A DNA stretch of 64,000 nucleotides from assembly GCA_026706485.1 (NCBI GenBank), contig JAPOYR010000004.1, positions 124,001 through 188,000 on the forward strand, read 5' to 3'. The notes under the pieces are model-generated. The model was not told the DNA's origin, did not search any database, and saw nothing but the letters and a program-made list of their open reading frames with translations. Positions 2,253-64,000 of the stretch are shown here, in pieces; positions within the stretch are counted from its first letter, which is position 1; every line of letters starts with the position of its first letter. Source of the stretch: Chloroflexota bacterium. Its GTDB lineage: Bacteria; Chloroflexota; UBA11872. The position numbers were made by a program, and so were the translations under genes.

Positions 2253-2437
2253 GAGGCGTTGCCCTAGGTGACGGCGGCCCGGCACTCCCGCGAACCGCCC
2301 GACAGCCAGGCGGCGCAACTCTAGCGCACGCACGGACCGGAGTTTGCCCGCACCGAGCGAACGAGAGTGAGAGTGTGGTTTGCACCGCAGGTGGCGCCGA
2401 GCGAGCCGATAACACGGAATGGCGCCGTGGCTGCGGC

Positions 2438-2593: not shown

Positions 2594-4582
2594 CTAGGGA
2601 TTGGGCACCGCGAAGCTGATGCCCTCGATTTCGATTGCCAGGTCGACCAAGCTCGGGACGAGATCGAACACCACGGCAAACGTGGCCGTCTCGCCGCTTG
2701 GCACGCTCTCGACCTCGACTACCGGGCGGCCTTCCGATGCCGGCGTGGCCATGCCGCTGAGCGCCATGACACCCTCGGAGTCCACAGGAATGCTGTTGTA
2801 GTCCGGGTCATACAGAAAAATGTTCTCCTTGGAGACGACGATGTTTCCGCTGTCTTTGGTGTTGGTGAACGTGAAGGTCACGACCAGGTACAGGCCGTTC
2901 CGGGGCCTAACCGGTGAGCCTTGAGCCTGCGTCAACTGTTCGAAACGTTGCACCGAGACCAGCGTCAATTTGAACCCAAGTAATGTTGTGCGGACGGTGT
3001 CGCCTACCGTGGGCAGGAAGCTGCGCCATTCGGCGCTGTCCGCCCCTTCAACCGTGACCTCCACCACCTCTTCAACCGTGACCTCAGCCGAATCCTCGGC
3101 CTCGGTCTCGACCTCCGCTGTCTCGTCGCTGGCCCCGCAGAAGGGCAGACCAAGCCTGGCAAGGTCGTTTTCTTCGACATCCTGCAACCGGTCGGGGATG
3201 CAGCCGGTGAATTGGTTACCGCCGGCAAGCGCCAGCCATACGAGCCGGGACAGTTGGGCCAGCTCGGGTGGTATCGCACCGGTTAGGCGGTTTGCCTCGA
3301 GACCCAGGTGGATCAGGTTGGAGAGGCGACCAAGCTCGGGCGGGATCGGTCCAGTTATCTGGTTGCCAGTAAGACCAAGCCACTTCAGGTTGGCGAGATC
3401 GCCGAGCGCCGGCGGGATTGTTCCCGCAAGGTCGTTGATCGCGAGATCCAGCGCTTCCAGGCTTGCCAGTTGGCCCAACTCGGGCGGGACGGTCCCGGTC
3501 AGGCTATTCAATTGGGTACTCAGCACCCTCAGCTTCGAGAGTTGCCCCAGCTCAGGCGGCAAGACTCCGGCCAGCCGGTTGGAGGTGAGCACTAGCTGCG
3601 TGACCCGGCCGGAGTCGTCGGTGGCAACCCCGTCCCATTCGCTGAGAGGGGCGTCGCTCAGCCAGTTGGCGTTGCTTCTCCAGTTCGGTCCATTGGTGGC
3701 GTGGTAGAGCCGGATCAGCACCTCCCGGTCGGAAGCCGGAGTCGAAACCGGCCCAGGTGCGGATGCCGGCGCTGGCGAGGTCGTGGGCAGCGTGAAGCGG
3801 GGGAGCCCGGCGACGTCGTGCTGGGCAACGGGCGCCTTGGCCGCATCCGGAATGATCACGTTACTGAGCCGCTTCACCTTGTCGGGGACGTTCTGCAGGT
3901 TCACCCGGCCCACCGTGACTCCCGGAGCGGGCACGTTCCAGATCACGAACACCGTGCGCTGGGCGCGCAGCATCTGCAGGCCTTGCGGATTGCCGTTGAC
4001 CTCCCGTTCCTCATAGCGGATGGGGAGCCCGTAGAGGTTCAGCCAGTCGGGCTCGCTGAGGAAGCGCGCCTTGATGGCCGCGTTCTGCTCCAGCAGCGCC
4101 AGGTGGTTTTGGGTGATGGTGGCGAAGTCGGCGCCGCGGTCGGCTTCGAGCACCTGGTGGGGCGGGACGTTGGGCAGCTCGACGTCGGGGTACCGATTCG
4201 CGAGCACGTCGAGGGTGTTGTAGTAGTTCATGCGGCCTTGGCCGGGATCCCACTGGAGGATCACCTTCTGGAAGGCCTGGAGCGTGAAGGGGCCGTTGAC
4301 CCAGCGCTGGCTGATGGGATAGCCGATGGCCTGGAGGTCGCGCGCTTGGACGAAGTCCCACAGCGGCACGCCGTCAGCGTTGGTGACCGCGAAGCCGTCG
4401 TTGGGATCGTCCGTGTCGCCGCCGGTGATGGTGAAGAGGCAGCCGTCGTCGAGGGCGATGCCTTCGCACGACAGCGCCGCTGCTGATGGCCAGACGGTGA
4501 GCGCGGCTATCGAAGCAATGGCCAGCACCGCAGCCGCGAGGCGCAGCCGTCGCCGTTGGCTAGCCAGGCACAGCTTGGGCAT
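2594..4582 (-). CDS. secreted leucine-rich-repeat protein with DUF4352-like C-terminus
   Basis: The product has 662 residues. Signal peptide (residues about 10-36), then the same N-terminal domain of about 230 residues as the gene at 1-2252; it contains IGYPIS and QWDPG motifs that recall repeat modules of extracellular Chloroflexota proteins (weak inference). An LRR cap near residue 290 is followed by only six 24-residue repeats against at least 18 in the paralog. An acidic linker rich in Glu/Val leads to a C-terminal domain of about 130 residues (GDTVRTTLLGFKLTLVSV, later VVTFTFTNT) typical of DUF4352/telokin-like extracellular domains. The ATG at 4582 aligns with the paralog; 38 upstream in-frame codons were dropped as untypical. 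Function unknown; an extracellular binding role is inferred. Confidence 0.85.
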   Translation of the reverse strand: MPKLCLASQRRRLRLAAAVLAIASIAALTVWPSAAALSCEGIALDDGCLFTITGGDTDDPNDGFAVTNADGVPLWDFVQARDLQAIGYPISQRWVNGPFTLQAFQKVILQWDPGQGRMNYYNTLDVLANRYPDVELPNVPPHQVLEADRGADFATITQNHLALLEQNAAIKARFLSEPDWLNLYGLPIRYEEREVNGNPQGLQMLRAQRTVFVIWNVPAPGVTVGRVNLQNVPDKVKRLSNVIIPDAAKAPVAQHDVAGLPRFTLPTTSPAPASAPGPVSTPASDREVLIRLYHATNGPNWRSNANWLSDAPLSEWDGVATDDSGRVTQLVLTSNRLAGVLPPELGQLSKLRVLSTQLNSLTGTVPPELGQLASLEALDLAINDLAGTIPPALGDLANLKWLGLTGNQITGPIPPELGRLSNLIHLGLEANRLTGAIPPELAQLSRLVWLALAGGNQFTGCIPDRLQDVEENDLARLGLPFCGASDETAEVETEAEDSAEVTVEEVVEVTVEGADSAEWRSFLPTVGDTVRTTLLGFKLTLVSVQRFEQLTQAQGSPVRPRNGLYLVVTFTFTNTKDSGNIVVSKENIFLYDPDYNSIPVDSEGVMALSGMATPASEGRPVVEVESVPSGETATFAVVFDLVPSLVDLAIEIEGISFAVPNP

Positions 4583-4631
4583 GAGGGTTCGTATTCCAGG
4601 CAGGTATCTAGGCACTCGCGCAAACCGACCA

Positions 4632-4661: not shown

Positions 4662-4773
4662 TGGACCTGTGTCCCAGGTAGCCAGCGGATTCGCAAGTGC
4701 GGGTTCGGCTATCGCCGAGAGTGCGTCGTCGCCAAACGGGATCTGGACACCGCCGAATGCCGGTGGTTGCGGC

Positions 4774-5145
4774 CTACGCTCGTGCGCGATCGATGGTGAC
4801 GGCGGCTTCGGCGAGAATGGAGCCGGCGATGGCGACGCTGGGCTTGGCGATGCGCACGCGCACGCGGGTGACGCGGGGGAACTCGGCCAGAACGCGCGCG
4901 GCGATCGTTTCTCCGAGCGACTCCAGCAGATTGCGCGGCTGCCCCTGCATCACATCCTGCGCGACGGCGTAGAGCTCGCTGTAGTTGACGGTGTCGCTGA
5001 CGCTGTCGGACTGGCCGGCGGCGCGCAGGTCGGCGTGAACGTCCATGTCCACCACGAAGCGCTGCCCCAGGGTGCGCTCCTCGGCGCGGGCGCCGTGGTA
5101 GGCGAAGAAGATCATGCCCTTGAGGCTGATGACGTCGGTGTTCAT
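4774..5145 (-). CDS. folB: dihydroneopterin aldolase
   Basis: FolB cleaves 7,8-dihydroneopterin to 6-hydroxymethyl-7,8-dihydropterin in cytoplasmic folate synthesis. The product has 123 residues, the normal length for a one-domain FolB. It starts with the typical DVISLKGMIFFAYHGARAEER (substrate-binding region, with the Glu of AEER), and has the central DTVNYSELY and the conserved LLESLGETIAARVL. It ends the minus-strand run that begins with the S1-protein gene, though 201 bases with two palindromic repeats separate it from rlmB, so independent transcription is possible. Its 3' end exists in a second, degraded copy at 2438-2473. No other folate gene is in the window. Confidence 0.93.
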   Translation of the reverse strand: MNTDVISLKGMIFFAYHGARAEERTLGQRFVVDMDVHADLRAAGQSDSVSDTVNYSELYAVAQDVMQGQPRNLLESLGETIAARVLAEFPRVTRVRVRIAKPSVAIAGSILAEAAVTIDRARA

Positions 5146-5164
5146 GGATTTCCGCCTTTGGAGA

Positions 5165-5201
5165 CCCTCACCCTAACCCTCTCCCTGGAAGGGAGAGGGA
5201 A
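5165..5201. repeat. palindromic repeat, CCCTCACCC family
   Basis: CCCTCACCCTAA is followed by a hairpin with a 10-base stem (CCCTCTCCCT / AGGGAGAGGG, three-base loop). Nearly the same element is at 11056-11094, and variants are at 28763-28800 and, inverted inside a gene, at 54197-54233. Confidence 0.8.
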
Positions 5202-5252
5202 CCGGACCTGCCCGACGCCAGGCATCCGGCTCGTTTCCAGGCTCGACCGGAC

Positions 5253-11006: not shown

Positions 11007-11055
11007 CAGGGGGCCTTTGCGACAGTGGTCGACATCCTGCTCCTAGCCTCGAATG

Positions 11056-11094
11056 ACCCTCACCCTAACCCTCTCCCTGGAAGGGAGAGGGGAT
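11056..11094. repeat. palindromic repeat, CCCTCACCC family
   Basis: This copy lies between clpC and radA and is nearly identical to the copy at 5165-5201, with the same 10-base stem. In RNA it would form a hairpin between the two coding regions, which could affect transcript stability (inference). Confidence 0.8.
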
Positions 11095-11103
11095 AGGACC
11101 AGA

Positions 11104-13563
<2,460 letters not shown>

Positions 13564-32175: not shown

Positions 32176-32213
32176 ATTGCAACTCTATAGATACTGGTAG
32201 TAACAATAAGGAG

Positions 32214-32227
32214 TGGGGAATTCCCCA
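32214..32227. promoter_or_regulatory. perfect palindrome near the expected transcription start
   Basis: TGGGGAATTCCCCA is a perfect 14-base palindrome about eight bases after the candidate -10 and 61 bases before the Fic ATG. Its place fits an operator (inference). Confidence 0.4.
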
Positions 32228-32287
32228 TATATTCTCGAAGTGATAGTATGGGATCGCCACACGATCCTTGTTGTCGTTTCCGAACAT

Positions 32288-33493
32288 ATGGAAAGCCCCG
32301 CCGCCCAAGTCGAGATCTCCGACTCCGAAGAAACAGATGCCCGCCAGCGCGCTGGCAGGTATGTTGCGCAGCCGCAGGGCTACCGGGCGTTCATGCCATC
32401 CCCGCTGCCCCCGGAACCCCCGGTGCAATTGGACGGCGGACTTCAAGCCTTGCTCTCCCAGGCCGACCAGGCGCTGGGCCGCCTCGACGGCTCAATCCAG
32501 ACATTGCCCGATCCGGACCTGTTCGTGTTCATGTACGTGCGCAAGGAGGCCGTGCTCTCCAGCCAAATTGAGGGCACGCAGAGCTCGCTGCAAGACGTGC
32601 TGGCCGCGGAGGCTCAGATCCGCTCGCCGGATCGGCCACGCGACGTCGACGAGGTCATCAACTACGTGACGGCCATGAACCACGGTCTGGACCGATTGCA
32701 AACGCTGCCGATTTCCGTCCGCTTGATCCGCGAAATCCATGCCTGGCTGCTCGAAGGCGTCCGCGGGTCTCGGCTCCAACCAGGCGAGTTGCGCCGCAGG
32801 CAGAATTGGATCGGCCCCACTGGATGCACCCTAAACGAAGCGACGTTCGTTCCCCCGCCGCACCGCGTGGTGCCGAACGCCTTGGGCGCGCTGGAAGCGT
32901 TTATCCATAGCCCCAGCGAGTTACCGGTGCTGATCCAGATTGGATTGATCCACGCGCAATTCGAAACCATCCATCCGTTTCTCGATGGGAACGGACGCGT
33001 CGGCCGGCTGCTCATCACGTTCTTGCTCTGCCAGCGCGGAATCCTCGGGGAGCCTGTGCTCTATCTCTCACACTTCTTCCGGCAGCACCGCGGCGAGTAC
33101 TACGACCGGCTGCAGGCCGTGCGGGACCGCGGCGATTGGGAAGGCTGGCTGGCCTTCTTCCTGCGTGGCGCAGCCGCAGTCAGCAGCGAGGCCGCGGAGA
33201 CTGTGCGCCGTATCCTGACCCTGCGGGAGGAGCATCGGGCCCTGGTCACGGAGCGCCTGGGTCGGGCCGCCGCCGACGGCCATCGCGTGCTCGGCCGGCT
33301 CTACCGACAGCCGTTCCTCACCGTTGCCGATGTGCCGCCAATTACAGGGACCAACTATCCCGCCGCCAATCGCCTGGTTGCCCGACTGGTCCGGATAGGG
33401 GTGCTGGAGGAAATCACCGAAAGCCGGCGCAACCGCGTGTTCCGCTATGGCCCCTACCTTCAGGCTCTGGAGGGCGTCGAGACGGCCGACTAA
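32288..33493 (+). CDS. Fic-domain AMPylase-type protein with N-terminal inhibitory motif
   Basis: Protein of 401 residues. An N-terminal Fic_N region leads to the (S/T)xxxE(G/N) inhibitory helix SSQIEG (residues 91-96), which marks a class II, self-inhibited enzyme. The Fic core has the catalytic HPFLDGNGRVGR (residues 229-240) and the preceding beta-hairpin flap (NWIGPTGCTLNEATFVPPP). A C-terminal winged-helix-like segment follows (FLTVADVPPITGTNYPAANRLVARLVRIGVLEEI). Such proteins usually transfer AMP from ATP to a target Tyr, Ser or Thr. Upstream repeats suggest tight regulation; the C-terminal winged helix could act in autoregulation. A GTG at 32213 is possible but not preferred. It converges with, and overlaps by four bases, the next gene. 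Confidence 0.92.
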   Translation: MESPAAQVEISDSEETDARQRAGRYVAQPQGYRAFMPSPLPPEPPVQLDGGLQALLSQADQALGRLDGSIQTLPDPDLFVFMYVRKEAVLSSQIEGTQSSLQDVLAAEAQIRSPDRPRDVDEVINYVTAMNHGLDRLQTLPISVRLIREIHAWLLEGVRGSRLQPGELRRRQNWIGPTGCTLNEATFVPPPHRVVPNALGALEAFIHSPSELPVLIQIGLIHAQFETIHPFLDGNGRVGRLLITFLLCQRGILGEPVLYLSHFFRQHRGEYYDRLQAVRDRGDWEGWLAFFLRGAAAVSSEAAETVRRILTLREEHRALVTERLGRAAADGHRVLGRLYRQPFLTVADVPPITGTNYPAANRLVARLVRIGVLEEITESRRNRVFRYGPYLQALEGVETAD

Positions 33494-34520: not shown

Positions 34521-35729
34521 ATGAGCGGCCCGCGCCGGCGGAATGCGCACGTGATGCATCAACAGGTTCTGGATCTACTCGATGCCGACGCCATCGCGCG
34601 GGACACGCTGGCCTTTGTCCAAGTTCCCAGTGAGACGGGCGCCGAGGGTCCCGGCGGCGAGCACTTCGCCGCCCTTTGCGAGCGGGCCGGGCTCGAGGTC
34701 GAGGTCGACCGCTTCATTCCCGATCGACCCAACGTCTACGCGCGTCATCCGGGATCCGAGTCGGGGCGTCCGCTGCTGTTGAACGGCCACGTGGACACGA
34801 TCCCGCGCGGGGCCAGCGACCCGCCGGAGATGCGGGACGGCTGGGTCGTGGGCCGCGGCGCGGAGGATATGAAGGGCGGGCTGGTGGCGATGGTGCACGC
34901 GGCGATGGCGCTGCGTCGGGCCGGGGTGCGGTTGCGCTCGGATCTCTGGCTCACGGGAGTCGTCGGTCACGAAACGCCGGTGGGCAAGAAGGAAGGACCG
35001 AAGCGCCTGGTGGAACGCATTCACGCGGGCGACGTTCCGGCGGCGGCGGTGATCATCGCCGAGGGGCCGCACGCCATCTGGACGGCCGGGCTGGGCGCGG
35101 CGATGTTCCGCATCACGCTGACCAGCGCACGGGGCATCGTGCACACGCTGCACGTGCCCTACGCCGACAATCCGGCCCGCTGGGCGGGCACGATGCTGGA
35201 GGAATTCGCCGAATGGGAGGCGCGGTTCGAGGCGGAGACGCCGCATCTGCTCTGCGGCCGGCAGCGGGTCGACATCGGCCTGGTCGCGGGCGGCGACTAT
35301 CCCAACCGTCTGCCCACGCCCCTCACGCTGCGGGGCACGCGGCGCTGGCGGCACGGGCTGACGGCGGCCGACATCAAGGCGGAGCTGCGGGGGATCTGCC
35401 GGCGCATCGAGGAGAGGTCGGGGTTGGAGGCGACGTATTCGTTGGACGCGCCGCACGAACCCTTCGAGACGCCCGGCGACCACGCGCTGGTGCGTGCGCT
35501 AGAGGCCGCGGCCGCTACCGCCACCGGCGCCGCGCTGCCGCGGATTGGGCTGGGGCTGGTGACCGACGCCAACATCTACGCCAACGACGCGTCGCTGCCG
35601 GTGGTCTGCTGCGGCCCCGAGTACGCCACGGCCCACTCGGACCACGAGCGCGTGTCGGTCGAGCGCCTGCACCGGACCGCCGGGCTCTACGCGCTGGCGG
35701 CAATGGAATTCTGCGGCGTAGAAACCTGA
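34521..35729 (+). CDS. M20 family metallopeptidase/deacylase
   Basis: Zinc hydrolase of the ArgE/DapE/ACY1 group, 402 residues. Metal-site motifs are LLNGHVDTIP (His and Asp), GRGAEDMKGG (bridging Asp) and VVGHETP (catalytic and metal Glu). The lid/dimerisation domain includes SARGIVHTLHVPYADNPA. The C-terminal metal His is in ATAHSDHERVSVERL. It may remove acyl groups from amino acids or peptides. The first ATG is used; another is 11 codons on. Its last 34 codons recur in degraded form at 36811-36915. Confidence 0.9.
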   Translation: MSGPRRRNAHVMHQQVLDLLDADAIARDTLAFVQVPSETGAEGPGGEHFAALCERAGLEVEVDRFIPDRPNVYARHPGSESGRPLLLNGHVDTIPRGASDPPEMRDGWVVGRGAEDMKGGLVAMVHAAMALRRAGVRLRSDLWLTGVVGHETPVGKKEGPKRLVERIHAGDVPAAAVIIAEGPHAIWTAGLGAAMFRITLTSARGIVHTLHVPYADNPARWAGTMLEEFAEWEARFEAETPHLLCGRQRVDIGLVAGGDYPNRLPTPLTLRGTRRWRHGLTAADIKAELRGICRRIEERSGLEATYSLDAPHEPFETPGDHALVRALEAAAATATGAALPRIGLGLVTDANIYANDASLPVVCCGPEYATAHSDHERVSVERLHRTAGLYALAAMEFCGVET

Positions 35730-35834
35730 CGCCTGGGCGCCGAAGCAGGTCTGGCAGGCGTTCGGCGGTAGTGAGCCCGAACTCGGGCGGCTCGAGCTAG
35801 TCGGAATAGGACTTTGTGTCGAGGGACTATTCTC

Positions 35835-35888
35835 TTGACTAAGTCGTGTCATTGAAATACTCTCCTAGAGCAAGGGAGTATTCCATTG
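35835..35888 (+). promoter_or_regulatory. promoter with overlapping inverted repeat
   Basis: TTGACT (35835-35840), a 17-base spacer and TACTCT (35858-35863) form a good promoter. AATACTC (35856-35862) and GAGTATT (35876-35882) are an inverted repeat covering the -10. The box AAGGGAGTATTCCATTG (35872-35888) recurs near the second Fic gene. It reads toward the first membrane-protein paralog. Confidence 0.5.
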
Positions 35889-35991
35889 GTAAGACGCATG
35901 AGTTTCCATTTCACCGTGGATGTGCGTGGGATTGAAGCCGTTTCTCTCTTCCGGCGCTCTTGCGAAGCGCTCACGCAAAGTGGGCAATCCC

Positions 35992-36795
35992 ATGTCTGAC
36001 CGGCGCTACACGATGGCCAAGCCGTACTGGCGCCAGCTACTGGAATCGCCGCGTTTCGTGGCGGGTGTCTTGGGGACCGCGATGGCCCTGTGGGTCATTC
36101 TGCGCTTGGTGGGAGTCCTCGACGGTTGGGACCTGTTGACGCTCGTCTTGGCCATCGCCGGTCTCGCTTGGGTGATTGACCTCGGCCCGCGCCACCCGGC
36201 CGGGTGGCTTGTGATCAGCGCCGGCATCCTGGTGCAGGTAAGCCAACTCGGTGCGTTTGGCAGCGGCGTGCAACTGGGTATCTGGCTGGCGTTTGCAATC
36301 GTTGCCCTCGGCGTCCTGTGGAAAAACGGGACCATCCGCACGCGTCGGACGGTGCGCTTCCGCGGGTGGAAAGACCGCCGCGTGGACCTCACCTACACCG
36401 GGGGTGCGCTGCGCGCCAGGGGCGACATCCGGCGGGGCGAGATCACCTGTCGGCTGAGCAAGGTCGTGGTCGATCTGCGGTACGTCGACATCACGCGTCC
36501 GCCGGCGATCCTCGATGTGTCGTGCGTCGCGGGTCGGCTGGACCTAGTCGTGCCGGTCTGGTGGCGCATCGGCCAAAACGTGAACTCCACGCTCTCGCGC
36601 CTGGTGCTCGAGGCGCGGCTGGCCGGGGAACATGGCAGTCCAAGGACCAGCTCGTGGCTTAAGCGCATGCGTCCGGTCGGCAGCCAGAGGCGTGGCGTCA
36701 ACGAGGGCGGAGACCCGGAGCCGGACGCAGGCTTCGTGAACCTGCTGGTCCAGGGGTCGTCGCACTTTGGCCGGGTTCGGATTCGCCACGCCTGA
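35992..36795 (+). CDS. membrane protein with C-terminal soluble domain, copy 1
   Basis: Protein of 267 residues, family not recognised. About four hydrophobic helices (residues about 20-120; FVAGVLGTAMALWVILRLVGV, LLTLVLAIAGLAWVI, WLVISAGILVQVSQL, LGIWLAFAIVALGVLW) resemble the small LiaF-type membrane module. They are followed by a beta-rich domain of about 130 residues (RVDLTYTGGALRARGDIRRGEI, LDVSCVAGRLDLVVPVWWRI) like the DUF2154/LiaF-C cell-wall stress domain. LiaF proteins repress envelope-stress kinases; this assignment is tentative, and no kinase gene adjoins. A paralog of nearly the same length follows at 37109. Confidence 0.75.
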   Translation: MSDRRYTMAKPYWRQLLESPRFVAGVLGTAMALWVILRLVGVLDGWDLLTLVLAIAGLAWVIDLGPRHPAGWLVISAGILVQVSQLGAFGSGVQLGIWLAFAIVALGVLWKNGTIRTRRTVRFRGWKDRRVDLTYTGGALRARGDIRRGEITCRLSKVVVDLRYVDITRPPAILDVSCVAGRLDLVVPVWWRIGQNVNSTLSRLVLEARLAGEHGSPRTSSWLKRMRPVGSQRRGVNEGGDPEPDAGFVNLLVQGSSHFGRVRIRHA

Positions 36796-36810
36796 CGACC
36801 GGCGTTCGCC

Positions 36811-36915
36811 GCGACGGGCCACTTGGACGAGGAGGGCGTGTCGGTCGACCGCCTGCGTCGTCCCGCCGCGCGCTACGCCCTCGCGGCGACGGAGTTTCGC
36901 GGCGTCGAGAGTTGA
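36811..36915 (+). pseudogene. duplicated 3' end of the M20 peptidase gene
   Basis: The reading frame ATGHLDEEGVSVDRLRRPAA, RYALAATEFRGVES and stop aligns with the last 34 residues of the M20 peptidase with about 22 identities and no gap. It has no start and starts just after the first membrane-protein gene. The rest of 36796-37108 shows no gene and is leader for the second copy. Confidence 0.8.
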
Positions 36916-37108
36916 CGCCACGGGCCTGAGACCGGGAGGGCGGTCTCGGGCCGACGCATCCGGTCCTTTGCTAGGCTCCGAGTTGAGGAGCACTGCATGC
37001 ACCACACCGGGCTCGTGTCACAGGACGAGCGCAGCCTTAGGGCCTGCTCGGCGCGGTACACCTCAAGAACTGCCCGCGCGCCTCGGCGCGCGCACGGTGG
37101 GCGATCCC

Positions 37109-37924
37109 ATGCCTGACGACATGCGCGACCGGCGCTACATGATGGCCAGGCCGTTTTGGCGCCAGCTGCTGGACTCGCCCCGCTTCATGCGGGCGGCCTT
37201 TGGGATGGTCCTGTTTCTCTGGATCATCCTGCGCATGGTCGGGGTCCTCGATGTCTGGGACCTGCTGACGATGATGTTGCTCCTCTTTAGTCTCAGCTGG
37301 GCGAATGATCTCGGCCCGCGCAGTCCGATCCCATGGCTTGTGGTCGGCGGCGGAGTCCTGGTGCAGGTGAGTCATCACGGCGATTTCACCGGCGGCGTGC
37401 AGGCGGGCATCTGGCTGGCCTTCGCGATCGTTGCCTTCGGCGCCCTGTGGCAAAGCGGAGCCATCCGCACGCGTCGCACGGTGCGCCTGCGGGGGTGGAA
37501 GGACAGCCACGTGGACCTGACCTATACCGGGGGCACGCTGCGCGCGCGGGGCGATGTCCGGCGGGGCGAAATCAACTGCCGGCTGTGCGACGTCACGGTC
37601 GATCTGCGCTACGTCGACATCACACGTCCACCGGCGATCCTCGACGTGACGTGCGTCGCGGGACGGCTGGACCTGGTGGTGCCGGTCTGGTGGCGTATCG
37701 GCCAAAACGTGAACAACACGCTCTCGCGCCTGGTGCTGGAGGCGCGCCTCGCCGGAGAACATGGCAGCCCCGTACCGCGCAACTGGATTGGTCCGATGCG
37801 GTCGATCGGCAGCCGCAGGCGCGGCGTCAGTGGCGGCGACGAGCCAGAGCCGGACGCGGGCTTCGTGAACCTGCTGATCCAGGGGTCGTCGCACTTCGGC
37901 CGGGTGCGGATTCGCCACGCCTGA
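37109..37924 (+). CDS. membrane protein with C-terminal soluble domain, copy 2
   Basis: Protein of 271 residues, a close paralog of the gene at 35992 (about two-thirds identity by eye, strongest in the C-terminal domain: RYVDITRPPAILDV, CVAGRLDLVVPVWWRIGQNV, SSHFGRVRIRHA). It has the same four N-terminal helices. Divergence is concentrated in the membrane part and in the last loop. The ATG at 37109 aligns with copy 1; the frame is open upstream, but that part is the M20 remnant in another frame. Function unknown, possibly LiaF-like. Confidence 0.75.
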   Translation: MPDDMRDRRYMMARPFWRQLLDSPRFMRAAFGMVLFLWIILRMVGVLDVWDLLTMMLLLFSLSWANDLGPRSPIPWLVVGGGVLVQVSHHGDFTGGVQAGIWLAFAIVAFGALWQSGAIRTRRTVRLRGWKDSHVDLTYTGGTLRARGDVRRGEINCRLCDVTVDLRYVDITRPPAILDVTCVAGRLDLVVPVWWRIGQNVNNTLSRLVLEARLAGEHGSPVPRNWIGPMRSIGSRRRGVSGGDEPEPDAGFVNLLIQGSSHFGRVRIRHA

Positions 37925-37999
37925 CGGTGTGAGTTTGCTTCCGCGGAGCGGGTCCGTCCGCAGAGGCCGGGAACGCATGTTTCAGCGCGCGAGCGGTCG

Positions 38000-39220
38000 C
38001 TAGGCCACCAGCTCGTTCGCGAGCGACAGACCCTCGTCGAGCCGGTGCGGCCAGTCGGGCGCGAGATGCCGCACTGGATTGGTGCAGACCCGGAAAATGC
38101 ACACGGCCTCTCGCAGGTTGAGCGCGCGTTCGTCCCAACCGAACCGATCCAGCGCGGCCTCGCGCATGCGGCGGTAGTAGGCGCCGCTGGCCTTGGCCTC
38201 GGCTTCGGGCCCGAAGTTCGCCGACCAACGCGTATGGGCCAGGAAGTTGCCCACGTCGAGGAGCGGATCGCCCAGCCCGGTCTCCTCGAAGTCCACCAGC
38301 GCCAACCGGCCATCCGGGATGCGGATCATCTGGTCGTCGTAGAAGTCGTTGTGGGCGGTGCCTGACGGCTGCCACGTTTGAACGAACGGATCCAGTGCGG
38401 CGACTGCTTCCCGCAGGGTTCGGCGCGGGCCGTCGTGGTCCCGCAGTACCTGGCGAAACACGCGCCGCGCCCGCCGGTAGGCGCCGCGGAGGCTGAATGG
38501 GCGCCGGCCGTTGGCCGGATCGGGGATGTTCCAGAGCCCGGTCAGCGCGTCGAGGATCAGCTTGGGGTCGATCGCGTCGTCCTTGCGGATCAGCCTTCGG
38601 ACGTTGGTTCCCGGAATTTCGGACAGCCAGACCACGCCGCCCTCGGTCCAGCAGCCTGCCAGGCGCGGCAGCGCAAACCCGGACGGCGCCACCAGCTCCG
38701 CCGCCTCCATCAGGCGGAAGACGCGTTCGGGCCGCATGACCCGGACGTAGAAGCGCACTTGACCGACTCGATGGCGCAGCACGGCGTGCCCGCCGGGTCG
38801 GTAGCGCACAACGTTCACACGCACGCGCCGCACGGGGATCTCAACCACATGTCTGTTGAACAGCGAGCACGCGGTTTCCGGGGAGGCGGCGTCGCTCAAT
38901 CCGGGCAGGTGAGGATCTTGCGGATAGCGGAATAGGCGCGCCGGTTGCCCGGGCGCCAGTTCGATGGCAAACGATTCCTGGGTGACGAAATCGTCGTGCA
39001 GCCACTCCGCGGCGCAGGTAAGCACGGCGCGCCGGCGCGGGTTATAGCTGAGCTGCCGCAATCGAAGGCGATGCGGTGGATCTTCCGGTTGGCCGAACGA
39101 GGCGCAATGGGCGCGCCAGACCCACTCGCCGTCGAAGAGGTCGGAAAACCCGGCTAGCTCAGCGTCCTCCGGCAGAGTGACCGGCGGAGACAACGGCGGC
39201 ATCGCGGAGATTCCCGACAC
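38000..39220 (-). CDS. phosphotransferase enzyme family protein (APH fold)
   Basis: Kinase-like protein of 406 residues. The Brenner-type catalytic loop is GTAHNDFYDDQM (about residue 290), and the metal-binding DFE is in LALVDFEETGLGDPLLDVGNFLA. The N-lobe includes VNVVRYRPGGHAVLRHRV. The family phosphorylates small molecules such as choline, homoserine, aminoglycosides or sugars; nothing in the context decides which. It starts at GTG behind GGAGA. It is convergent with the second membrane-protein copy. Confidence 0.82.
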   Translation of the reverse strand: MSGISAMPPLSPPVTLPEDAELAGFSDLFDGEWVWRAHCASFGQPEDPPHRLRLRQLSYNPRRRAVLTCAAEWLHDDFVTQESFAIELAPGQPARLFRYPQDPHLPGLSDAASPETACSLFNRHVVEIPVRRVRVNVVRYRPGGHAVLRHRVGQVRFYVRVMRPERVFRLMEAAELVAPSGFALPRLAGCWTEGGVVWLSEIPGTNVRRLIRKDDAIDPKLILDALTGLWNIPDPANGRRPFSLRGAYRRARRVFRQVLRDHDGPRRTLREAVAALDPFVQTWQPSGTAHNDFYDDQMIRIPDGRLALVDFEETGLGDPLLDVGNFLAHTRWSANFGPEAEAKASGAYYRRMREAALDRFGWDERALNLREAVCIFRVCTNPVRHLAPDWPHRLDEGLSLANELVA

Positions 39221-40161: not shown

Positions 40162-41013
40162 TTAGTCGTCAAGGGCGACGAGGATCTCGTTGCGGACGGT
40201 CACGACCAGCGTCTCGTTGTAGAGCGTCGGCGGTCGACGCGGCAGCGGCGGCTCGGTGGGCGTCCGGGACGGGTCGCGCAGGGCGCGGCGGTCGCGGCCC
40301 CGCACCTCCCACCACCAGTGCTCGGATGCCAACGGCTCGACCTCGCGCCGCAGGATGAACTCGGTGCGGTCCCAGGCGCTGAAGGCCGCGTGGGCCAGGA
40401 ACACCCGCGACACCGTGGCCCCGTCCCACGTCGCGAGATCGGGCAGCGCCATCGGCCCGGTATCGACCTGAAAGGCGCCCTTGGTGCGCTCGATGTTGAT
40501 CGTGCGAATGGGGTATTCCAGCGTGATGGTGAGCCCGAGGGCGCTTTCGTAGTGCGTGGTGCGGGCGTTCAAGCGCCGGCCGGCCAAGACTGCGTCCACG
40601 ACCGCGCCGGTGTCACGCGTGGTCTGCGCGTCGGGAACCTCGTGGGTCGTGAAATGCGTGCCGGCGTAGCGGCCGGCGTGTGGCGTGGTGGCGGTCGGCT
40701 CGCGCTCGGTTGACGGGCGTCTGGCGATGGGGATGCCGTGCGAGCGGCTCAGCGCCACCCGAAACTCCTGGCTGGGAACCTGGAACAGGTTGCGGTCGGC
40801 GATGGTGTATTCGGCCAGGCAGGGCTGCAGCAGGAAGATTTCCAGCGGGGGTGCGCCCTGGTCCCCGGTGATCGTGCACACGGAGTCGTAGCCGATGCGC
40901 ACGTGGTAGGCGTCGCCGGGCTGACCCACGAAGCCGCCCGGATACTTGTACTCCGGATCCGGCCGGTGGGGCAGGTGATCCCAGGTGAAGTGCGAGCGCG
41001 CGAAGTCGATCAC
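40162..41013 (-). CDS. uncharacterised protein, paralog A of a tandem pair
   Basis: Cytoplasmic-looking protein of 283 residues with no signal peptide, membrane helix or recognised fold. Family blocks shared with the gene at 41207 are YPGGFVGQPGDAYHVRIGYDS, FLLQPCLAEYTIADRNLFQVP, RLNARTTHYESALGLTITLEYPIRTIN, ALPDLATWDGATVSRVFLAHAAFSAWDRTEFILRR. The GTG at 41013 (with GAGG upstream) aligns with the paralog's ATG. A long upstream open stretch in frame covers a palindromic repeat and is rejected as coding. Function unknown. Confidence 0.8.
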   Translation of the reverse strand: MIDFARSHFTWDHLPHRPDPEYKYPGGFVGQPGDAYHVRIGYDSVCTITGDQGAPPLEIFLLQPCLAEYTIADRNLFQVPSQEFRVALSRSHGIPIARRPSTEREPTATTPHAGRYAGTHFTTHEVPDAQTTRDTGAVVDAVLAGRRLNARTTHYESALGLTITLEYPIRTINIERTKGAFQVDTGPMALPDLATWDGATVSRVFLAHAAFSAWDRTEFILRREVEPLASEHWWWEVRGRDRRALRDPSRTPTEPPLPRRPPTLYNETLVVTVRNEILVALDD

Positions 41014-41206: not shown

Positions 41207-42049
41207 CTAGACCTCCGAGCTCCGCCAGATGGTGTTGTCTGCCGCGAGCTCCCAGGTTTCGAAGTAGCCGGCGGCACGGGGTGGCGGCCGATCGACCGGA
41301 TCACCCGGGATGCGCCGCTCGTACCTGTCGCGCCCGCGCACGGCCGCCGCCCAGGCGAGCTCGTGCTCGGCCAGGTCGATGCTGCGACGCAGGACGAACT
41401 CAACGTGGTCGTCGGCGGTGAAGGCCGCGTGGGCCACGAAGACCCGGTCGACGCCATGCCCGTCCCAGGTCGTCAGATCGGGCAGCGCCACCGCGCCGGT
41501 GCACACCTGATAGCGGCCGCCGCCGGCGTGCAGGTTGATGAGCTTGATCGGGTATTCGACGGTGACGGTCAGGCCGTGCGAGCCGTCGCGGTAGGTGGAC
41601 CGGGCATTGAGGCGCGCGCCCGCCAGCGAAGCCGCGACGACCGCGTCGTCCGACGCCAGGGCCACGGCCTCACGGGTGCGCACGTCGATGGCGACCTCCG
41701 CGAAGCGCTCACCGACGGGCTGTCGCCGCGTGCCTTCGTCATGCCAGCTGGGCTCGTTGGCGATGGGGATCAAGACCGCGTCGCCGACCGCGGCGCGGAA
41801 CTCGCCGTTGGGCACTTGGAACAGGTTGTCGTCGGCGATGATGAACTCGGAGCGGCAGGGCGCGGTGAGAAAGATCGTGCACGCCGTGCCCCGCGCCTCA
41901 TCGACGATCTCGCAGCAAGCGTCGATCTGAACGCGGCTGGTGGTGGCCTCACCCGGCTCCCCGACGAAGCCGCCGGGATAGGCATAAACCGGGTCGGGTT
42001 CGGCCCACTCGATGGTCCATGTGACGAAGGATCGGTTGAAGTCGATCAT
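41207..42049 (-). CDS. uncharacterised protein, paralog B of a tandem pair
   Basis: Protein of 280 residues sharing its whole length with the gene at 40162 (YPGGFVGEPGEATTSRVQID, FIIADDNLFQVPNGEFRAAV, RLNARSTYRDGSHGLTVTVEYPIKLINL, DLTTWDGHGVDRVFVAHAAF). Identity is moderate, so the duplication is old. An N-terminal Asp (MIDFNRSFVTW) and repeated Trp/Asp motifs are conserved, but no catalytic signature is recognised. The copies are 193 bases apart and separated by an inverted repeat. Confidence 0.8.
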   Translation of the reverse strand: MIDFNRSFVTWTIEWAEPDPVYAYPGGFVGEPGEATTSRVQIDACCEIVDEARGTACTIFLTAPCRSEFIIADDNLFQVPNGEFRAAVGDAVLIPIANEPSWHDEGTRRQPVGERFAEVAIDVRTREAVALASDDAVVAASLAGARLNARSTYRDGSHGLTVTVEYPIKLINLHAGGGRYQVCTGAVALPDLTTWDGHGVDRVFVAHAAFTADDHVEFVLRRSIDLAEHELAWAAAVRGRDRYERRIPGDPVDRPPPRAAGYFETWELAADNTIWRSSEV

Positions 42050-59044: not shown

Positions 59045-60205
59045 CTACCGCTCCGAGCCATCGCCGCCGTCTGAGTCGGGCCGGCGGCGTTTCCTCGTAT
59101 ACCTATCCGCCCAACCCGACCGCTCGGCTGCGGCGATCAGTTCGGCCAAGAGGTCCGGATTCACCGCATAGCGCGTATTCCGTCCCTTGCCCGATCGCAC
59201 GGCGGCGCCACAGGACACCAGGTGCGTCAGGTCCGCGTAAGCGGTGGATGGGGACGCGCCGATCAGGCGCGCGTACATGGAGCTGGACACGGAGCCCGTG
59301 TCGATGATGTACGTCAGGCCCAGCGTCTGCCGTTCGTTCAGCCGCGTGCCGAACTCGTCCCGCCAGGCGTCCTGACGCCCCTTGAAAGACACGACAAAGT
59401 GCTCGAGCATCGCGGCGGCCGTGCTCAGGGCGTCGGTGTGGAACGCGGCGAACGGCGTCGCATCGACCGCGGACTGGAAGTCCAGACCGTGCGTGTCGCG
59501 GAGCGCCTGGTAGTAGCCGTCGCGGTTGCGCCAGATCACCACATTCAGCACCAACATGCCCTCCGCCGACCAACCCGCCTGGTGCAGGATCATGTCGGCC
59601 AGCAGACGGGCCGTCCGACCGTTTCCCTCCTCGAATGGGTGGATCAAGACCAGGCCGGCGTGCGCCAGCGCCGCGATGATCGGCGCCGGATAGTTTTCCT
59701 CGGCCGTCCAGCGCTGGATGTGGGCGACCAGCCGGTCCATCAGGTCCGGGACCCAAGCCGGCGGCGGCGGCCGATAGCGGATCTCGCGCGATTCCGCGTC
59801 CTCGATCAGACTGGGTCCGGTGCGGTACTGCCCACGGCGCCCTGAGGTTTCCTCCGGCAAGCCTTCGAGGATCAGCGAGTTCATGGCGCGCAGCAGTCCC
59901 TGGTCGATTCCCACCGTCGGGTCCGCCGCCAGCTGTTCCATTAGCTCATACGCGCCCCACAGGTTCGTCAGCTCGCGCTCCTCGGGTCGGACCGGATCGC
60001 CCTCGCCCGCAAACAGGACCCGGGCCTCTTCGTAGCCGAGGGGGTTGCCCTCCACCTTCGCGGAGGCGAGCGTGCTCAGATAGCGCGCACGCTCGCGGAA
60101 ATAGGGCTCATAGCCGCTGGGGATCAGCGTGCGGACCTCATAGAGGCGCCGAAACAGAGAATCCGTGTCGATATTGCCGACATCCGCGGCTAGCGAGAGA
60201 TCCAT
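59045..60205 (-). CDS. Fic-domain protein with N-terminal inhibitory motif
   Basis: Protein of 386 residues. The inhibitory (S/T)xxxE(G/N) motif is SAKVEG (residues 48-53) and the catalytic motif HPFEEGNGRTAR (residues 189-200). The C-terminal wHTH-like part (SSSMYARLIGASPSTAYADLTHLVSCGAAVRSGKGRNTRYAV) could bind DNA. It is a second class II Fic protein, only distantly similar to the one at 32288. It ends 28 bases after the terminase stop, convergent to it. A -35 TTGACA lies upstream at 60266-60261. Confidence 0.9.
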   Translation of the reverse strand: MDLSLAADVGNIDTDSLFRRLYEVRTLIPSGYEPYFRERARYLSTLASAKVEGNPLGYEEARVLFAGEGDPVRPEERELTNLWGAYELMEQLAADPTVGIDQGLLRAMNSLILEGLPEETSGRRGQYRTGPSLIEDAESREIRYRPPPPAWVPDLMDRLVAHIQRWTAEENYPAPIIAALAHAGLVLIHPFEEGNGRTARLLADMILHQAGWSAEGMLVLNVVIWRNRDGYYQALRDTHGLDFQSAVDATPFAAFHTDALSTAAAMLEHFVVSFKGRQDAWRDEFGTRLNERQTLGLTYIIDTGSVSSSMYARLIGASPSTAYADLTHLVSCGAAVRSGKGRNTRYAVNPDLLAELIAAAERSGWADRYTRKRRRPDSDGGDGSER

Positions 60206-60260: not shown

Positions 60261-60300
60261 TGTCAAGGGAATACTCCATTGAGCCAATGCGATATTCCAT
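60261..60300 (-). promoter_or_regulatory. upstream region of the second Fic gene with recurring box
   Basis: On the minus strand GGAGTATTCC precedes TTGACA, and GATATTCC lies on the plus strand at 60291-60298. The 17-base stretch 60265-60281 matches 35872-35888 in 15 positions. No good -10 is visible. Confidence 0.4.
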
Positions 60301-62094: not shown

Positions 62095-63522
62095 TCACTC
62101 CGCCGGCTGGTGCCCCTTTCGGCGTGCCGCGAACCGCCCGAAACCAAGCGGCCCTGGTCGGACGCTCTCCACGAGGACGAGTGGGATCAGCGTGATTGCC
62201 GTCAGCGCGACGACCGCGTCCGCCACCAGCAGCCACCAGCGTGCGTCGGTGGTGAGGAGCCGCCAAATCGCGGCCAGCTTGCTGAGCGTGGCCTCGGGCG
62301 CGCTGTAGGCGACAAACTCCAGGTTCTGATCCGGCCAGGCCAGCTCGCCGTTGATCCAGAGGCGACCGTCCTCGTAGCGGTCGCCGTTGGTCAGGCCAAC
62401 GCCAAGCCCCGCGCCGGGTGCGACATCGGCCGCGACTTGCGCGGCCAGCGGCTGGCCCTCACCAGCTGTGAGTGGCGGTTGGAGCTCAATCATCTTCCAG
62501 CGCGGACAGTCGCCCACCGGGACCTCGATCGACCCCTCGGCAAGGGTGCGGTCGGGCGTGTCAAGGGGCGTGACGCGCACCGTGACCGCTCCGCCGTGAC
62601 CTTCCCACTCGCAGTTGAAGAGCAGGAGCCCGAGGCTCTGCACGGGCGTGGCCGGCATGCGGAATCCCTGGACCAGGGCTTCCTGGCGGCTGAGATTCAC
62701 TTCGAAGGCGCCGGAACGCGTGTAGGGGGCCAGCGCCTCGATCAGTGGCGCACGGAAGAGGAACGCGAGCGCAAGGCTTCCGAGTATGGCCAGCGCCGCG
62801 ATCGATCCGACGAGCGACCGACGCCAGCGGCCGCCGAAGAGGGGATACGGCGGCGGGCGGCCATGGCGCAGCACGCCGACCGCGCTGAGCCCGATCAGCA
62901 GGGTCCCGCTGAACTCCGCGGTTTCTTCGAGCACGTACCCCAGCGTCACCGCGCCACCGGTGGGCATCCAGCGCCCGATCGCCTCCTGCACGAGCGCAAA
63001 CACCCAGCAGGCAATTCCAAGCGTCAGCGGAGCGCGGGCCGCCCGCGCGCTCATACCCTTGCGAACGAAGAGCCACATCGCCAGCACGAAAACGGCGACC
63101 AGCGGACTCACCAGCACGGGCCACGGCAGGCCTGTGCGTCCGGCCTGGTCGAAGAGGGAGATTGGTCCGCGGTCCTTGAACTCGGCCAGCTCCTCGAAGG
63201 TCAAGGCCGCGGACGTCACGGTCAGCGCGGCCCATCCGCCGACCGCAATCCAGCCGGCCGAGCGGCGGTAGCTGACAGCGGCCGCGGCAAGCGCCAGCGC
63301 CGTGACGCACGCCAAGCCGGCAGCCGACACCGAGTTCGCAATCGTGCCTTCGTTGTCGGCATCCAGCCGGCTCAGGGTGGGGTCCCAGGGCGGAAGCAGC
63401 TCCGGGAATGCGAGGCTGAACAGGTGAGTCGCAACGTACCCACCCCACCAGAAGACGATTGCGCCCAGCAGCAGCAGCCGCGCGGTCCAATCAACCAGTT
63501 GCCAGGTGGTGCGTCGGTTCAT
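62095..63522 (-). CDS. membrane protein of unknown family, with extracytoplasmic domain
   Basis: Protein of 475 residues. About seven hydrophobic helices cover residues 10-270 (first: TARLLLLGAIVFWWGGYVATHLF); a soluble domain (residues about 280-430, LLLFNCEWEGHGGAVTVRVTPL, GDCPRWKMIELQPPL, GRLWINGELAWPDQNLEFVAY) resembles a jelly-roll or carbohydrate-binding fold; a last helix (WWLLVADAVVALTAITLIPLVLV) ends it. The ATG overlaps the stop of the next upstream gene (ATGA). Function unknown. Confidence 0.8.
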   Translation of the reverse strand: MNRRTTWQLVDWTARLLLLGAIVFWWGGYVATHLFSLAFPELLPPWDPTLSRLDADNEGTIANSVSAAGLACVTALALAAAAVSYRRSAGWIAVGGWAALTVTSAALTFEELAEFKDRGPISLFDQAGRTGLPWPVLVSPLVAVFVLAMWLFVRKGMSARAARAPLTLGIACWVFALVQEAIGRWMPTGGAVTLGYVLEETAEFSGTLLIGLSAVGVLRHGRPPPYPLFGGRWRRSLVGSIAALAILGSLALAFLFRAPLIEALAPYTRSGAFEVNLSRQEALVQGFRMPATPVQSLGLLLFNCEWEGHGGAVTVRVTPLDTPDRTLAEGSIEVPVGDCPRWKMIELQPPLTAGEGQPLAAQVAADVAPGAGLGVGLTNGDRYEDGRLWINGELAWPDQNLEFVAYSAPEATLSKLAAIWRLLTTDARWWLLVADAVVALTAITLIPLVLVESVRPGPLGFGRFAARRKGHQPAE

Positions 63523-64000
63523 GGGGTAGCTGGCCGGTGCATGTCAGGCAGTCCGGGCGCGTCTTGAGCGCGCGGGCGGATGCTTGCCAGGAGAAGAGTC
63601 GGAATGAGGGTGATCACCGTAAGCGCGATGCCCAGATCGGCAGCCAGCAGCCACCAGCGGAAGTCGGTGGCGAGCAGCCGCCCAATGCCTAGCAGCTTGC
63701 TCCACGTGGGTTCGGGCGCACTGTAGGCGACAAACTCCAGATTCTGATCCGGCCAAGCCAACGCGCCGTTGACCCAGAGCCGCCCGTCCCGGTAGCGGTC
63801 GCCTTTGGTGGCGCCCACGCGGAGCTCGGCACCCGGGGCGACCACGGCCGATACCTGCAGTGCCAGCCGCTGGCCCTCGGCTGCAGTGAGTGGCGGCAGG
63901 AGCTCCACGTCGTGCCAGCGGGGGCAATCGCCCGCGGGAACCTGCACCGACCCCTGGGCGAGGATACGGTCGGGCGTGTCGGTGGGTGCGGCGCGGACCG
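63519..64000 (-). CDS. paralog of the preceding membrane protein (5' end outside window)
   Basis: Only the C-terminal 160 residues are in the window. GDCPRWHDVELLPPL, GRLWVNGALAWPDQNLEFVAYSAP and the final helix WWLLAADLGIALTVITLIPTLLL align with the paralog at 62095 over their whole length. The start lies beyond the right edge; the in-frame GTG at 63947 is inside the domain and is not a true start. Confidence 0.8.
   Translation of the reverse strand, partial: VRAAPTDTPDRILAQGSVQVPAGDCPRWHDVELLPPLTAAEGQRLALQVSAVVAPGAELRVGATKGDRYRDGRLWVNGALAWPDQNLEFVAYSAPEPTWSKLLGIGRLLATDFRWWLLAADLGIALTVITLIPTLLLASIRPRAQDAPGLPDMHRPATP

What the first reader, a model, noticed from the sequence alone, without database searches (positions are those of the whole stretch)
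34521..37924. Second duplication of the same kind: M20 peptidase tail between two membrane-protein paralogs
The last 34 codons of the M20 peptidase recur, without start, at 36811-36915, directly between the two paralogs. As with folB, the duplicated unit was the neighbour's tail plus the gene.
Basis: seen in the sequence. Interest (0 to 1): 0.65.

Follow-up and report, generated by a model that had tools for sequence, protein, structure and literature searches.

The report
Tandem LiaF-like genes carrying neighbour-gene scraps
Two neighbouring copies of a membrane-protein gene in a Chloroflexota genome are separated by a dead scrap of the upstream peptidase gene left by an old tandem duplication; the first copy also appears to have been rewired to the promoter of an unrelated fic gene, so an ordinary kind of duplication preserves a readable history of how a gene copy changed its control.

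Summary
The last 34 codons of the M20 gene recur at 36811-36915 (86/110 nt identical, BLASTN E 8e-22) between two 80%-identical paralogs. The interpretation, tandem duplication of "neighbour's tail + gene", is supported. Five of six congeneric genomes carry 2-3 tandem copies (types Z, A, B). Four show clear M20-tail scraps at every internal junction, one with an internal stop; the fifth (G002) keeps only aligned fragments. The sixth has one copy, apparently by loss. The folB case in this window is the same kind.

(1) The paralogs are divergent LiaF-like proteins. (2) The first copy no longer has the ancestral upstream region. It sits behind a fic promoter plus about 25 fic codons. Its palindromic operator CAANGGANTANTCCNTTG occurs in the genus (6 genomes) only there and at the intact fic-HTH gene, which suggests promoter capture. 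(3) All 12 copies follow a short ORF whose stop overlaps codons 2-3, suggesting translational coupling preserved through the rearrangements.

Duplication with a neighbour's remnant, and promoter capture, are both known processes. The fic-to-LiaF rewiring is the only unexpected part, and it is inferred from sequence.

The parts
34521..35729 (+). M20 family (ArgE/DapE-like) peptidase/deacylase gene, intact; donor of the tail
   Evidence: Pfam PF01546 E 1.2e-24; NCBIfam DapE-ArgE E 4e-37, below its cut-off; 89-92% identical orthologs in 5 congeners at the same locus
35624..35733 (+). 3' end of M20, original copy of the repeat
35730..35976 (+). fic-derived block: upstream region, promoter, operators and first ~25 codons of a fic gene, starting right after the M20 stop
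   Evidence: alignment to the intact fic upstream/head: score 98 vs max 42 in 1000 shuffles; also in G001, G002, G003, G005, absent in G004
35820..35837 (.). palindrome O1 (CGAGGGACTATTCTCTTG), overlaps putative -35 TTGACT 35835-35840; putative -10 TACTCT 35858-35863, spacer 17
   Evidence: the strict promoter scan found no hit
35871..35888 (.). palindrome O2 (CAAGGGAGTATTCCATTG), nearly invariant in all five stubs
35898..35999 (+). 33-aa ORF: fic head fused in frame to the end of the leader; its stop overlaps codons 2-3 of paralog A
35992..36795 (+). paralog A, 267 aa, divergent LiaF-like membrane protein
36810..36919 (+). M20 tail scrap (34 codons + stop at 36811-36915), no start: pseudogene fragment marking the duplication junction
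36967..36990 (+). conserved TTTGCTAGGCTCC block (putative -10) and GAGGAG Shine-Dalgarno, ancestral upstream region of the gene
   Evidence: found in A and B copies across congeners
36997..37116 (+). 39-aa leader ORF (MHHTGLVSQDERSLRACSARY...), stop overlaps codons 2-3 of paralog B
37109..37924 (+). paralog B, 271 aa, divergent LiaF-like membrane protein, the best conserved copy in the genus
59045..60205 (-). intact fic gene (Fic domain + weak C-terminal winged-HTH match), 386 aa; presumed owner of the operator
   Evidence: Pfam Fic E 1.8e-16, DIP2311-like_C HTH E 0.007, below cut-off; 83-90% orthologs in all 5 congeners
60264..60281 (.). same palindrome at the fic promoter (CAAGGGAATACTCCATTG on +)

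Best explanation
A segment running from inside the 3' end of the M20 gene through the downstream LiaF-like gene was tandemly duplicated (more than once) before the sampled species of this genus diverged, giving M20 - Z - [tail] - A - [tail] - B. The unit reached into M20 because the gene's promoter and leader lie directly behind the M20 stop, so a self-sufficient extra copy has to bring that DNA along. The M20 tails have no start and are decaying. Later deletions and exchanges between copies removed Z or A in some species and trimmed the scraps at short repeats. Separately, promoter-plus-head DNA of a fic gene became placed between M20 and the first copy. Deletions then joined it to different downstream points, so that copy 1 now lies behind a promoter carrying the fic operators, while B keeps the ancestral promoter. 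Shown by sequence: the duplication, its age within the genus, the losses, the fic origin of the block, and the restriction of the operator to the two loci. Inferred: the order of events, that the Fic-HTH protein binds the operators and co-regulates copy 1, and that the short upstream ORFs couple translation.
For: Tail match. Same junctions in relatives, with scraps of 27-43 codons, one with internal TAG. Paralog tree: A-type copies from G000-G003, B-type from all six, Z from G001 and G005, so duplication precedes divergence; the single G004 copy nests in B, so it reflects loss. Copies under purifying selection, dN/dS 0.15-0.54. Last ~10 M20 codons also found between the fic stub and A in G002 and G003 (scores 38 and 41 vs shuffle maxima 34 and 32), joined at a shared CTGGCGGC. 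Fic stub homology in 5/6 genomes, scores 98-144 vs at most 45. Operator pattern with up to 1 mismatch found in six genomes only at fic (6/6) and at the stub (5/5), 0 for the reversed control. Leader stop at +8 in 12/12 copies, frame open in 12/12 while the other frames have stops in 5 and 7. Precedent: the Fic-HTH protein CccR represses its own promoter through palindromes near -35/-10 (PMC9755527).
Against: No expression, binding or read data. The strict promoter scan found no sigma-70 site in 35700-38000. Leader amino-acid sequence shows little codon-position bias (276/240/296 pairwise differences at positions 1/2/3), so the leader may be constrained in frame only or partly by chance. Several tree forks are weakly supported. 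G000_1 is a long branch whose membership of A has support 90/89 and may be recombinant. The G002 scrap is recognisable only by alignment to G003 (score 23, below the shuffle maximum).
Confidence: 0.75

Rival explanations
1. The M20-tail copy is a functional element: a retained small peptide, or a transcript element needed upstream of B, kept by selection.
For: Scraps persist at the same junctions in several species, and in G000 the frame is still open with the same stop.
Against: Scrap ends and lengths differ; G005 has an internal TAG; G002 has lost the middle; no start or Shine-Dalgarno. Scraps have diverged far more (59-72% aa to M20) than the M20 tails among species. The conserved parts lie 3' of the scrap.
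Confidence: 0.07
2. Tandem duplication is right, but the fic block is just another decayed pseudogene with no regulatory role, and the operators persist by shared ancestry.
For: Fic coding beyond ~25 codons is gone; O1 in G000 and G001 carries mismatches; no promoter hit at the strict threshold.
Against: O2 and the CACCGTGGATG segment are nearly or fully invariant in five species although synonymous sites of the copies are diverged; O2 matches the palindrome better in the stubs than in most fic genes; the stub ORF stays in frame with the coupled stop in G000, G001, G003 and G005.
Confidence: 0.3
3. The two membrane genes arrived separately by transfer and the tail match is chance or convergent.
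For: None found beyond the genus restriction of the family: no M20 ortholog at E<=1e-30 in the sister genus and only distant LiaF-like matches outside.
Against: Statistics of the tail match, and its recurrence at homologous positions in relatives.
Confidence: 0.01

Closest known systems
Tandem duplication by illegitimate recombination, with promoter capture by tandem duplication or deletion (reviewed in PMC11111574; patAB promoter switching in S. pneumoniae, PMC4432121)
   Same: Head-to-tail copies, a join carrying pieces of flanking genes, and a copy coming under a foreign promoter.
   Different: Those are recent selected mutants; here the join is old, shared by several species, with copies diverged to 62-75% protein identity and the scraps decaying at different rates.
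Fic-HTH autorepressor CccR of Yersinia pseudotuberculosis (PMC9755527)
   Same: Fic domain plus C-terminal DNA-binding domain (weakly matched here), similar length (386 vs about 380 aa), palindromes at the promoter of its own gene.
   Different: Here the palindromes also stand before a second, unrelated gene; binding is untested.
LiaF-like proteins (LiaI-LiaF-TM plus Toastrack; PMC11237479)
   Same: N-terminal membrane region followed by a beta-rich C-terminal domain; profile match 99.0%, E 3.1e-18 to LiaF-like relatives.
   Different: No Pfam/NCBIfam model passes its cut-off, the FGG signatures are replaced (VAGRLDLVVP, HFGRVRI), and no association with LiaRS was tested.
Deletion-born gene fusions (PMC12803068, abstract read)
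   Same: A deletion joins fragments of different genes, here fic head plus leader end.
   Different: Here the fused product would be a 33-52 aa leader before another gene, not a demonstrated new protein.

Membership tests
Tandem gene duplication with neighbour remnant | Second copy in direct orientation next to the first | tested here: met
   801 nt at 80%, spacing 1129
Tandem gene duplication with neighbour remnant | 3' fragment of the upstream neighbour at the internal junction, intact neighbour upstream | tested here: met
Tandem gene duplication with neighbour remnant | Homologous junction in relatives | tested here: met
Promoter capture | Upstream region of one copy derived from an unrelated gene's promoter | tested here: met
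Promoter capture | Transcription of the copy from the captured promoter | not testable with these tools
   no transcript data; promoter scan negative at its threshold
LiaF-like protein | LiaF-TM / LiaF-like_C model match above cut-off | tested here: not met
   LiaF-TM E 0.23 for paralog A, none for B
LiaF-like protein | Profile similarity to proteins that do match LiaF models | tested here: met
   hhalign 99.0%, E 3.1e-18 over 174 columns; the relatives pass the LiaF-TM cut-off
LiaF-like protein | Toastrack fold of the C-terminal domain | tested here: inconclusive
   AlphaFold2 mean pLDDT 48.5; four long membrane-type helices then strands, too low for a fold search
Fic-HTH autorepressor (CccR-like), for the 59045-60205 gene | Fic domain with HPFxxGNGRxxR and SxxxE[G/N] motifs | tested here: met
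   PF02661 E 1.8e-16; HPFEEGNGRTAR and SAKVEGN read in the translation
Fic-HTH autorepressor (CccR-like), for the 59045-60205 gene | C-terminal HTH | tested here: inconclusive
   DIP2311-like_C E 0.007, below cut-off
Fic-HTH autorepressor (CccR-like), for the 59045-60205 gene | Binding to the palindromes at its own promoter | not testable with these tools
   palindromes present in 6/6 genomes

The most novel reading that the evidence does not exclude
A Fic-HTH protein directly controls a LiaF-like envelope protein as well as itself, through operators that paralog 1 acquired when fic promoter and head DNA was fused in front of it. The fic start codons were kept as a new translated, coupled leader, so two copies of one gene ended up under different regulators.
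Probability: 0.4. Interest if true: 0.6.

Novelty: new member of a known kind. Interest (0 to 1): 0.42.

Why it matters
Duplications are usually too young (identical copies) or too old (no join left) for their breakpoints to be read. Here the neighbour's scraps date and orient the events across six species. They suggest why successful duplicates carry the upstream gene's tail: the unit must include the promoter lying against it. If the fic operators really drive copy 1, this would be a worked natural example of regulatory divergence of tandem duplicates by promoter capture, linking a Fic regulator to a LiaF-like membrane protein.

Tried and rejected
AlphaFold2 of paralog B with 10 close relatives: pLDDT 48.5, not used for a fold search. 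Pfam and NCBIfam on the paralogs alone: no significant family; solved through distant relatives and profile comparison. Sigma-70 promoter scan: nothing at its threshold. Codon-constraint test on the leader peptide: no clear protein-level constraint, so I claim only frame and stop conservation. Considered and rejected: that the scrap is a small gene (stops and length differ between species); that the G004 single copy is ancestral (it nests within the B clade); that the long in-frame extension upstream of B (TTG 36767) is the real start (that frame has stops in 5 of 12 copies). Literature search for this exact pattern gave general duplication papers only.

Full report
OBSERVATION. The M20 gene runs 34521-35729(+); two genes follow, A (35992-36795) and B (37109-37924), 80% identical over 801 nt. 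The last 110 nt of M20 including its stop recur at 36810-36919 with 86 identities and no gap, in frame with the same stop and without any start. E is 8e-22, and the score is 93 against a best of 36 in 500 shuffles. The finding is confirmed at the stated coordinates.

SYNTENY. The window belongs to a 3.37-Mb Chloroflexota genome; relatives are metagenome-assembled Chloroflexota. In all five congeners the order GFO-oxidoreductase (-) / M20 (+) / paralog(s) (+) is kept. G001 has three copies with an M20 scrap at both internal junctions; G003 and G005 have two copies with 43-codon scraps (G005 with an internal TAG); G002 has two copies with fragments alignable to the G003 junction; G004 has one copy. 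All five multi-copy genomes share the beginning of the 3' flank of the first copy. G000 and G001 share a further deletion that joins this flank to the tail at a short CACGGCCCAC-like repeat (the mechanism is my inference). The M20 ortholog was not found at E<=1e-30 in the sister genus.

HISTORY. The protein tree separates Z (G001_1, G005_1), A (G000_1, G001_2, G002_1, G003_1) and B (all six genomes). The duplications therefore precede the split of the sampled species, and the single G004 copy (type B) reflects loss. Leader types do not follow gene types (LRACSAR-type before G000_2, G001_2, G001_3, G003_1 and G004_1), and the two G001 junctions are nearly identical, so exchange between copies has occurred. 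All copies look like functional genes: dN/dS 0.15-0.54.

WHAT THE PROTEINS ARE. No family model passes its cut-off. Distant relatives in the family and order match LiaF-TM and, weakly, LiaF-like_C. Profile comparison links the two sets at 99.0%, E 3.1e-18, over 174 columns. I call them divergent LiaF-like proteins; the fold itself is unproved. In Bacillus subtilis LiaF is a negative regulator of the LiaRS envelope-stress system (abstract of PMC3543457); whether that holds here is unknown.

THE FIRST COPY'S UPSTREAM REGION. The 257 nt between M20 and A do not match the segment between scrap and B. They match the promoter and first codons of a fic gene whose intact copy lies at 59045-60205(-). 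The match is present in the five multi-copy genomes and absent in G004. Two palindromes flank the putative promoter (TTGACT, 17 nt, TACTCT in G000). With up to one mismatch the pattern CAANGGANTANTCCNTTG occurs in the six genomes only at the intact fic genes (6/6) and at these stubs (5/5), with no hit for the reversed control. In G002 and G003 the stub is followed by the last ~10 M20 codons at a shared CTGGCGGC, so a deletion joined fic codons to a tail scrap. The characterised Fic-HTH protein CccR represses its own gene through palindromes near -35 and -10 (PMC9755527), which makes control of copy 1 by the Fic-HTH protein the natural hypothesis. It is untested.

THE LEADER. Before every one of the 12 copies a short ORF ends in a stop at nucleotides 6-8 of the gene (ATGnCTGA; ATGCATGA and ATGCATAA in the Z copies). 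Codon 2 ends in T in 12/12 although T makes up 10.7% of third positions, and only this frame is open in all 12. The copies are related, so these are not 12 independent trials. Independent support comes from the fic-fused leaders, which kept the frame (G000_1, the G001_1/G005_1 pair, and G003_1, where the leader's own ATG is AGG). Translational coupling is my inference. There is little sign of selection on the peptide sequence.

WHY THE NEIGHBOUR'S TAIL IS IN THE UNIT. In A and B the promoter-like block and Shine-Dalgarno start roughly 50 nt after the M20 stop or its scrap. A duplicate carrying its own promoter must therefore begin at or inside the M20 tail. The folB case (folB 4774-5145(-), tail copy 2417-2471, downstream LRR-protein gene duplicated) has the same geometry. 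This is a survivorship argument, not a special mechanism.

VERDICT. Observation and interpretation stand. The kind of event is well known: promoter capture by duplication or deletion is summarised in PMC11111574 and shown for patAB in PMC4432121. The added result is the shared, multi-species history and the probable rewiring of copy 1 to the fic operator.

Noticed in passing
window 1288-2256 vs 3600-4586, with 2417-2471 vs 4755-4807: The folB case: the LRR-protein gene downstream of folB is tandemly duplicated (80% over 989 nt) with the last codons of folB repeated before the second copy; same geometry as the M20 case.
   Followed up: yes
window 40345-40609 vs 41384-41648 and 40722-40825 vs 41758-41861: A further ~1-kb tandem duplication (70-72% identity, spacing ~1037); no Pfam match for the overlapping ORFs tested.
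   Followed up: no
window 62156-62582 vs 63574-64000: Direct repeat of ~430 nt at 77% running into the window end; probably another tandem duplication cut by the window edge.
   Followed up: no
window 13151-13257 vs 13376-13482: 107-nt direct repeat at 84%, spacing 225.
   Followed up: no
window 5163-5208 vs 11055-11100: 46-nt dispersed repeat at 93%; similar CCCTCTCCC/GAGAGGG-rich sequence follows the last paralog in G003 and G004, perhaps a REP-like element.
   Followed up: no
window 32213-33493(+): A second, different Fic-family gene (Fic_N + Fic) lies two genes upstream of the array, 26 kb from the fic gene that shares the operator.
   Followed up: no
G005:C15:33463-34617: The G005 ortholog of the operator-bearing fic gene is reported with one in-frame TAG within the match, near its 3' end judging by the shorter tblastn match.
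   Followed up: no
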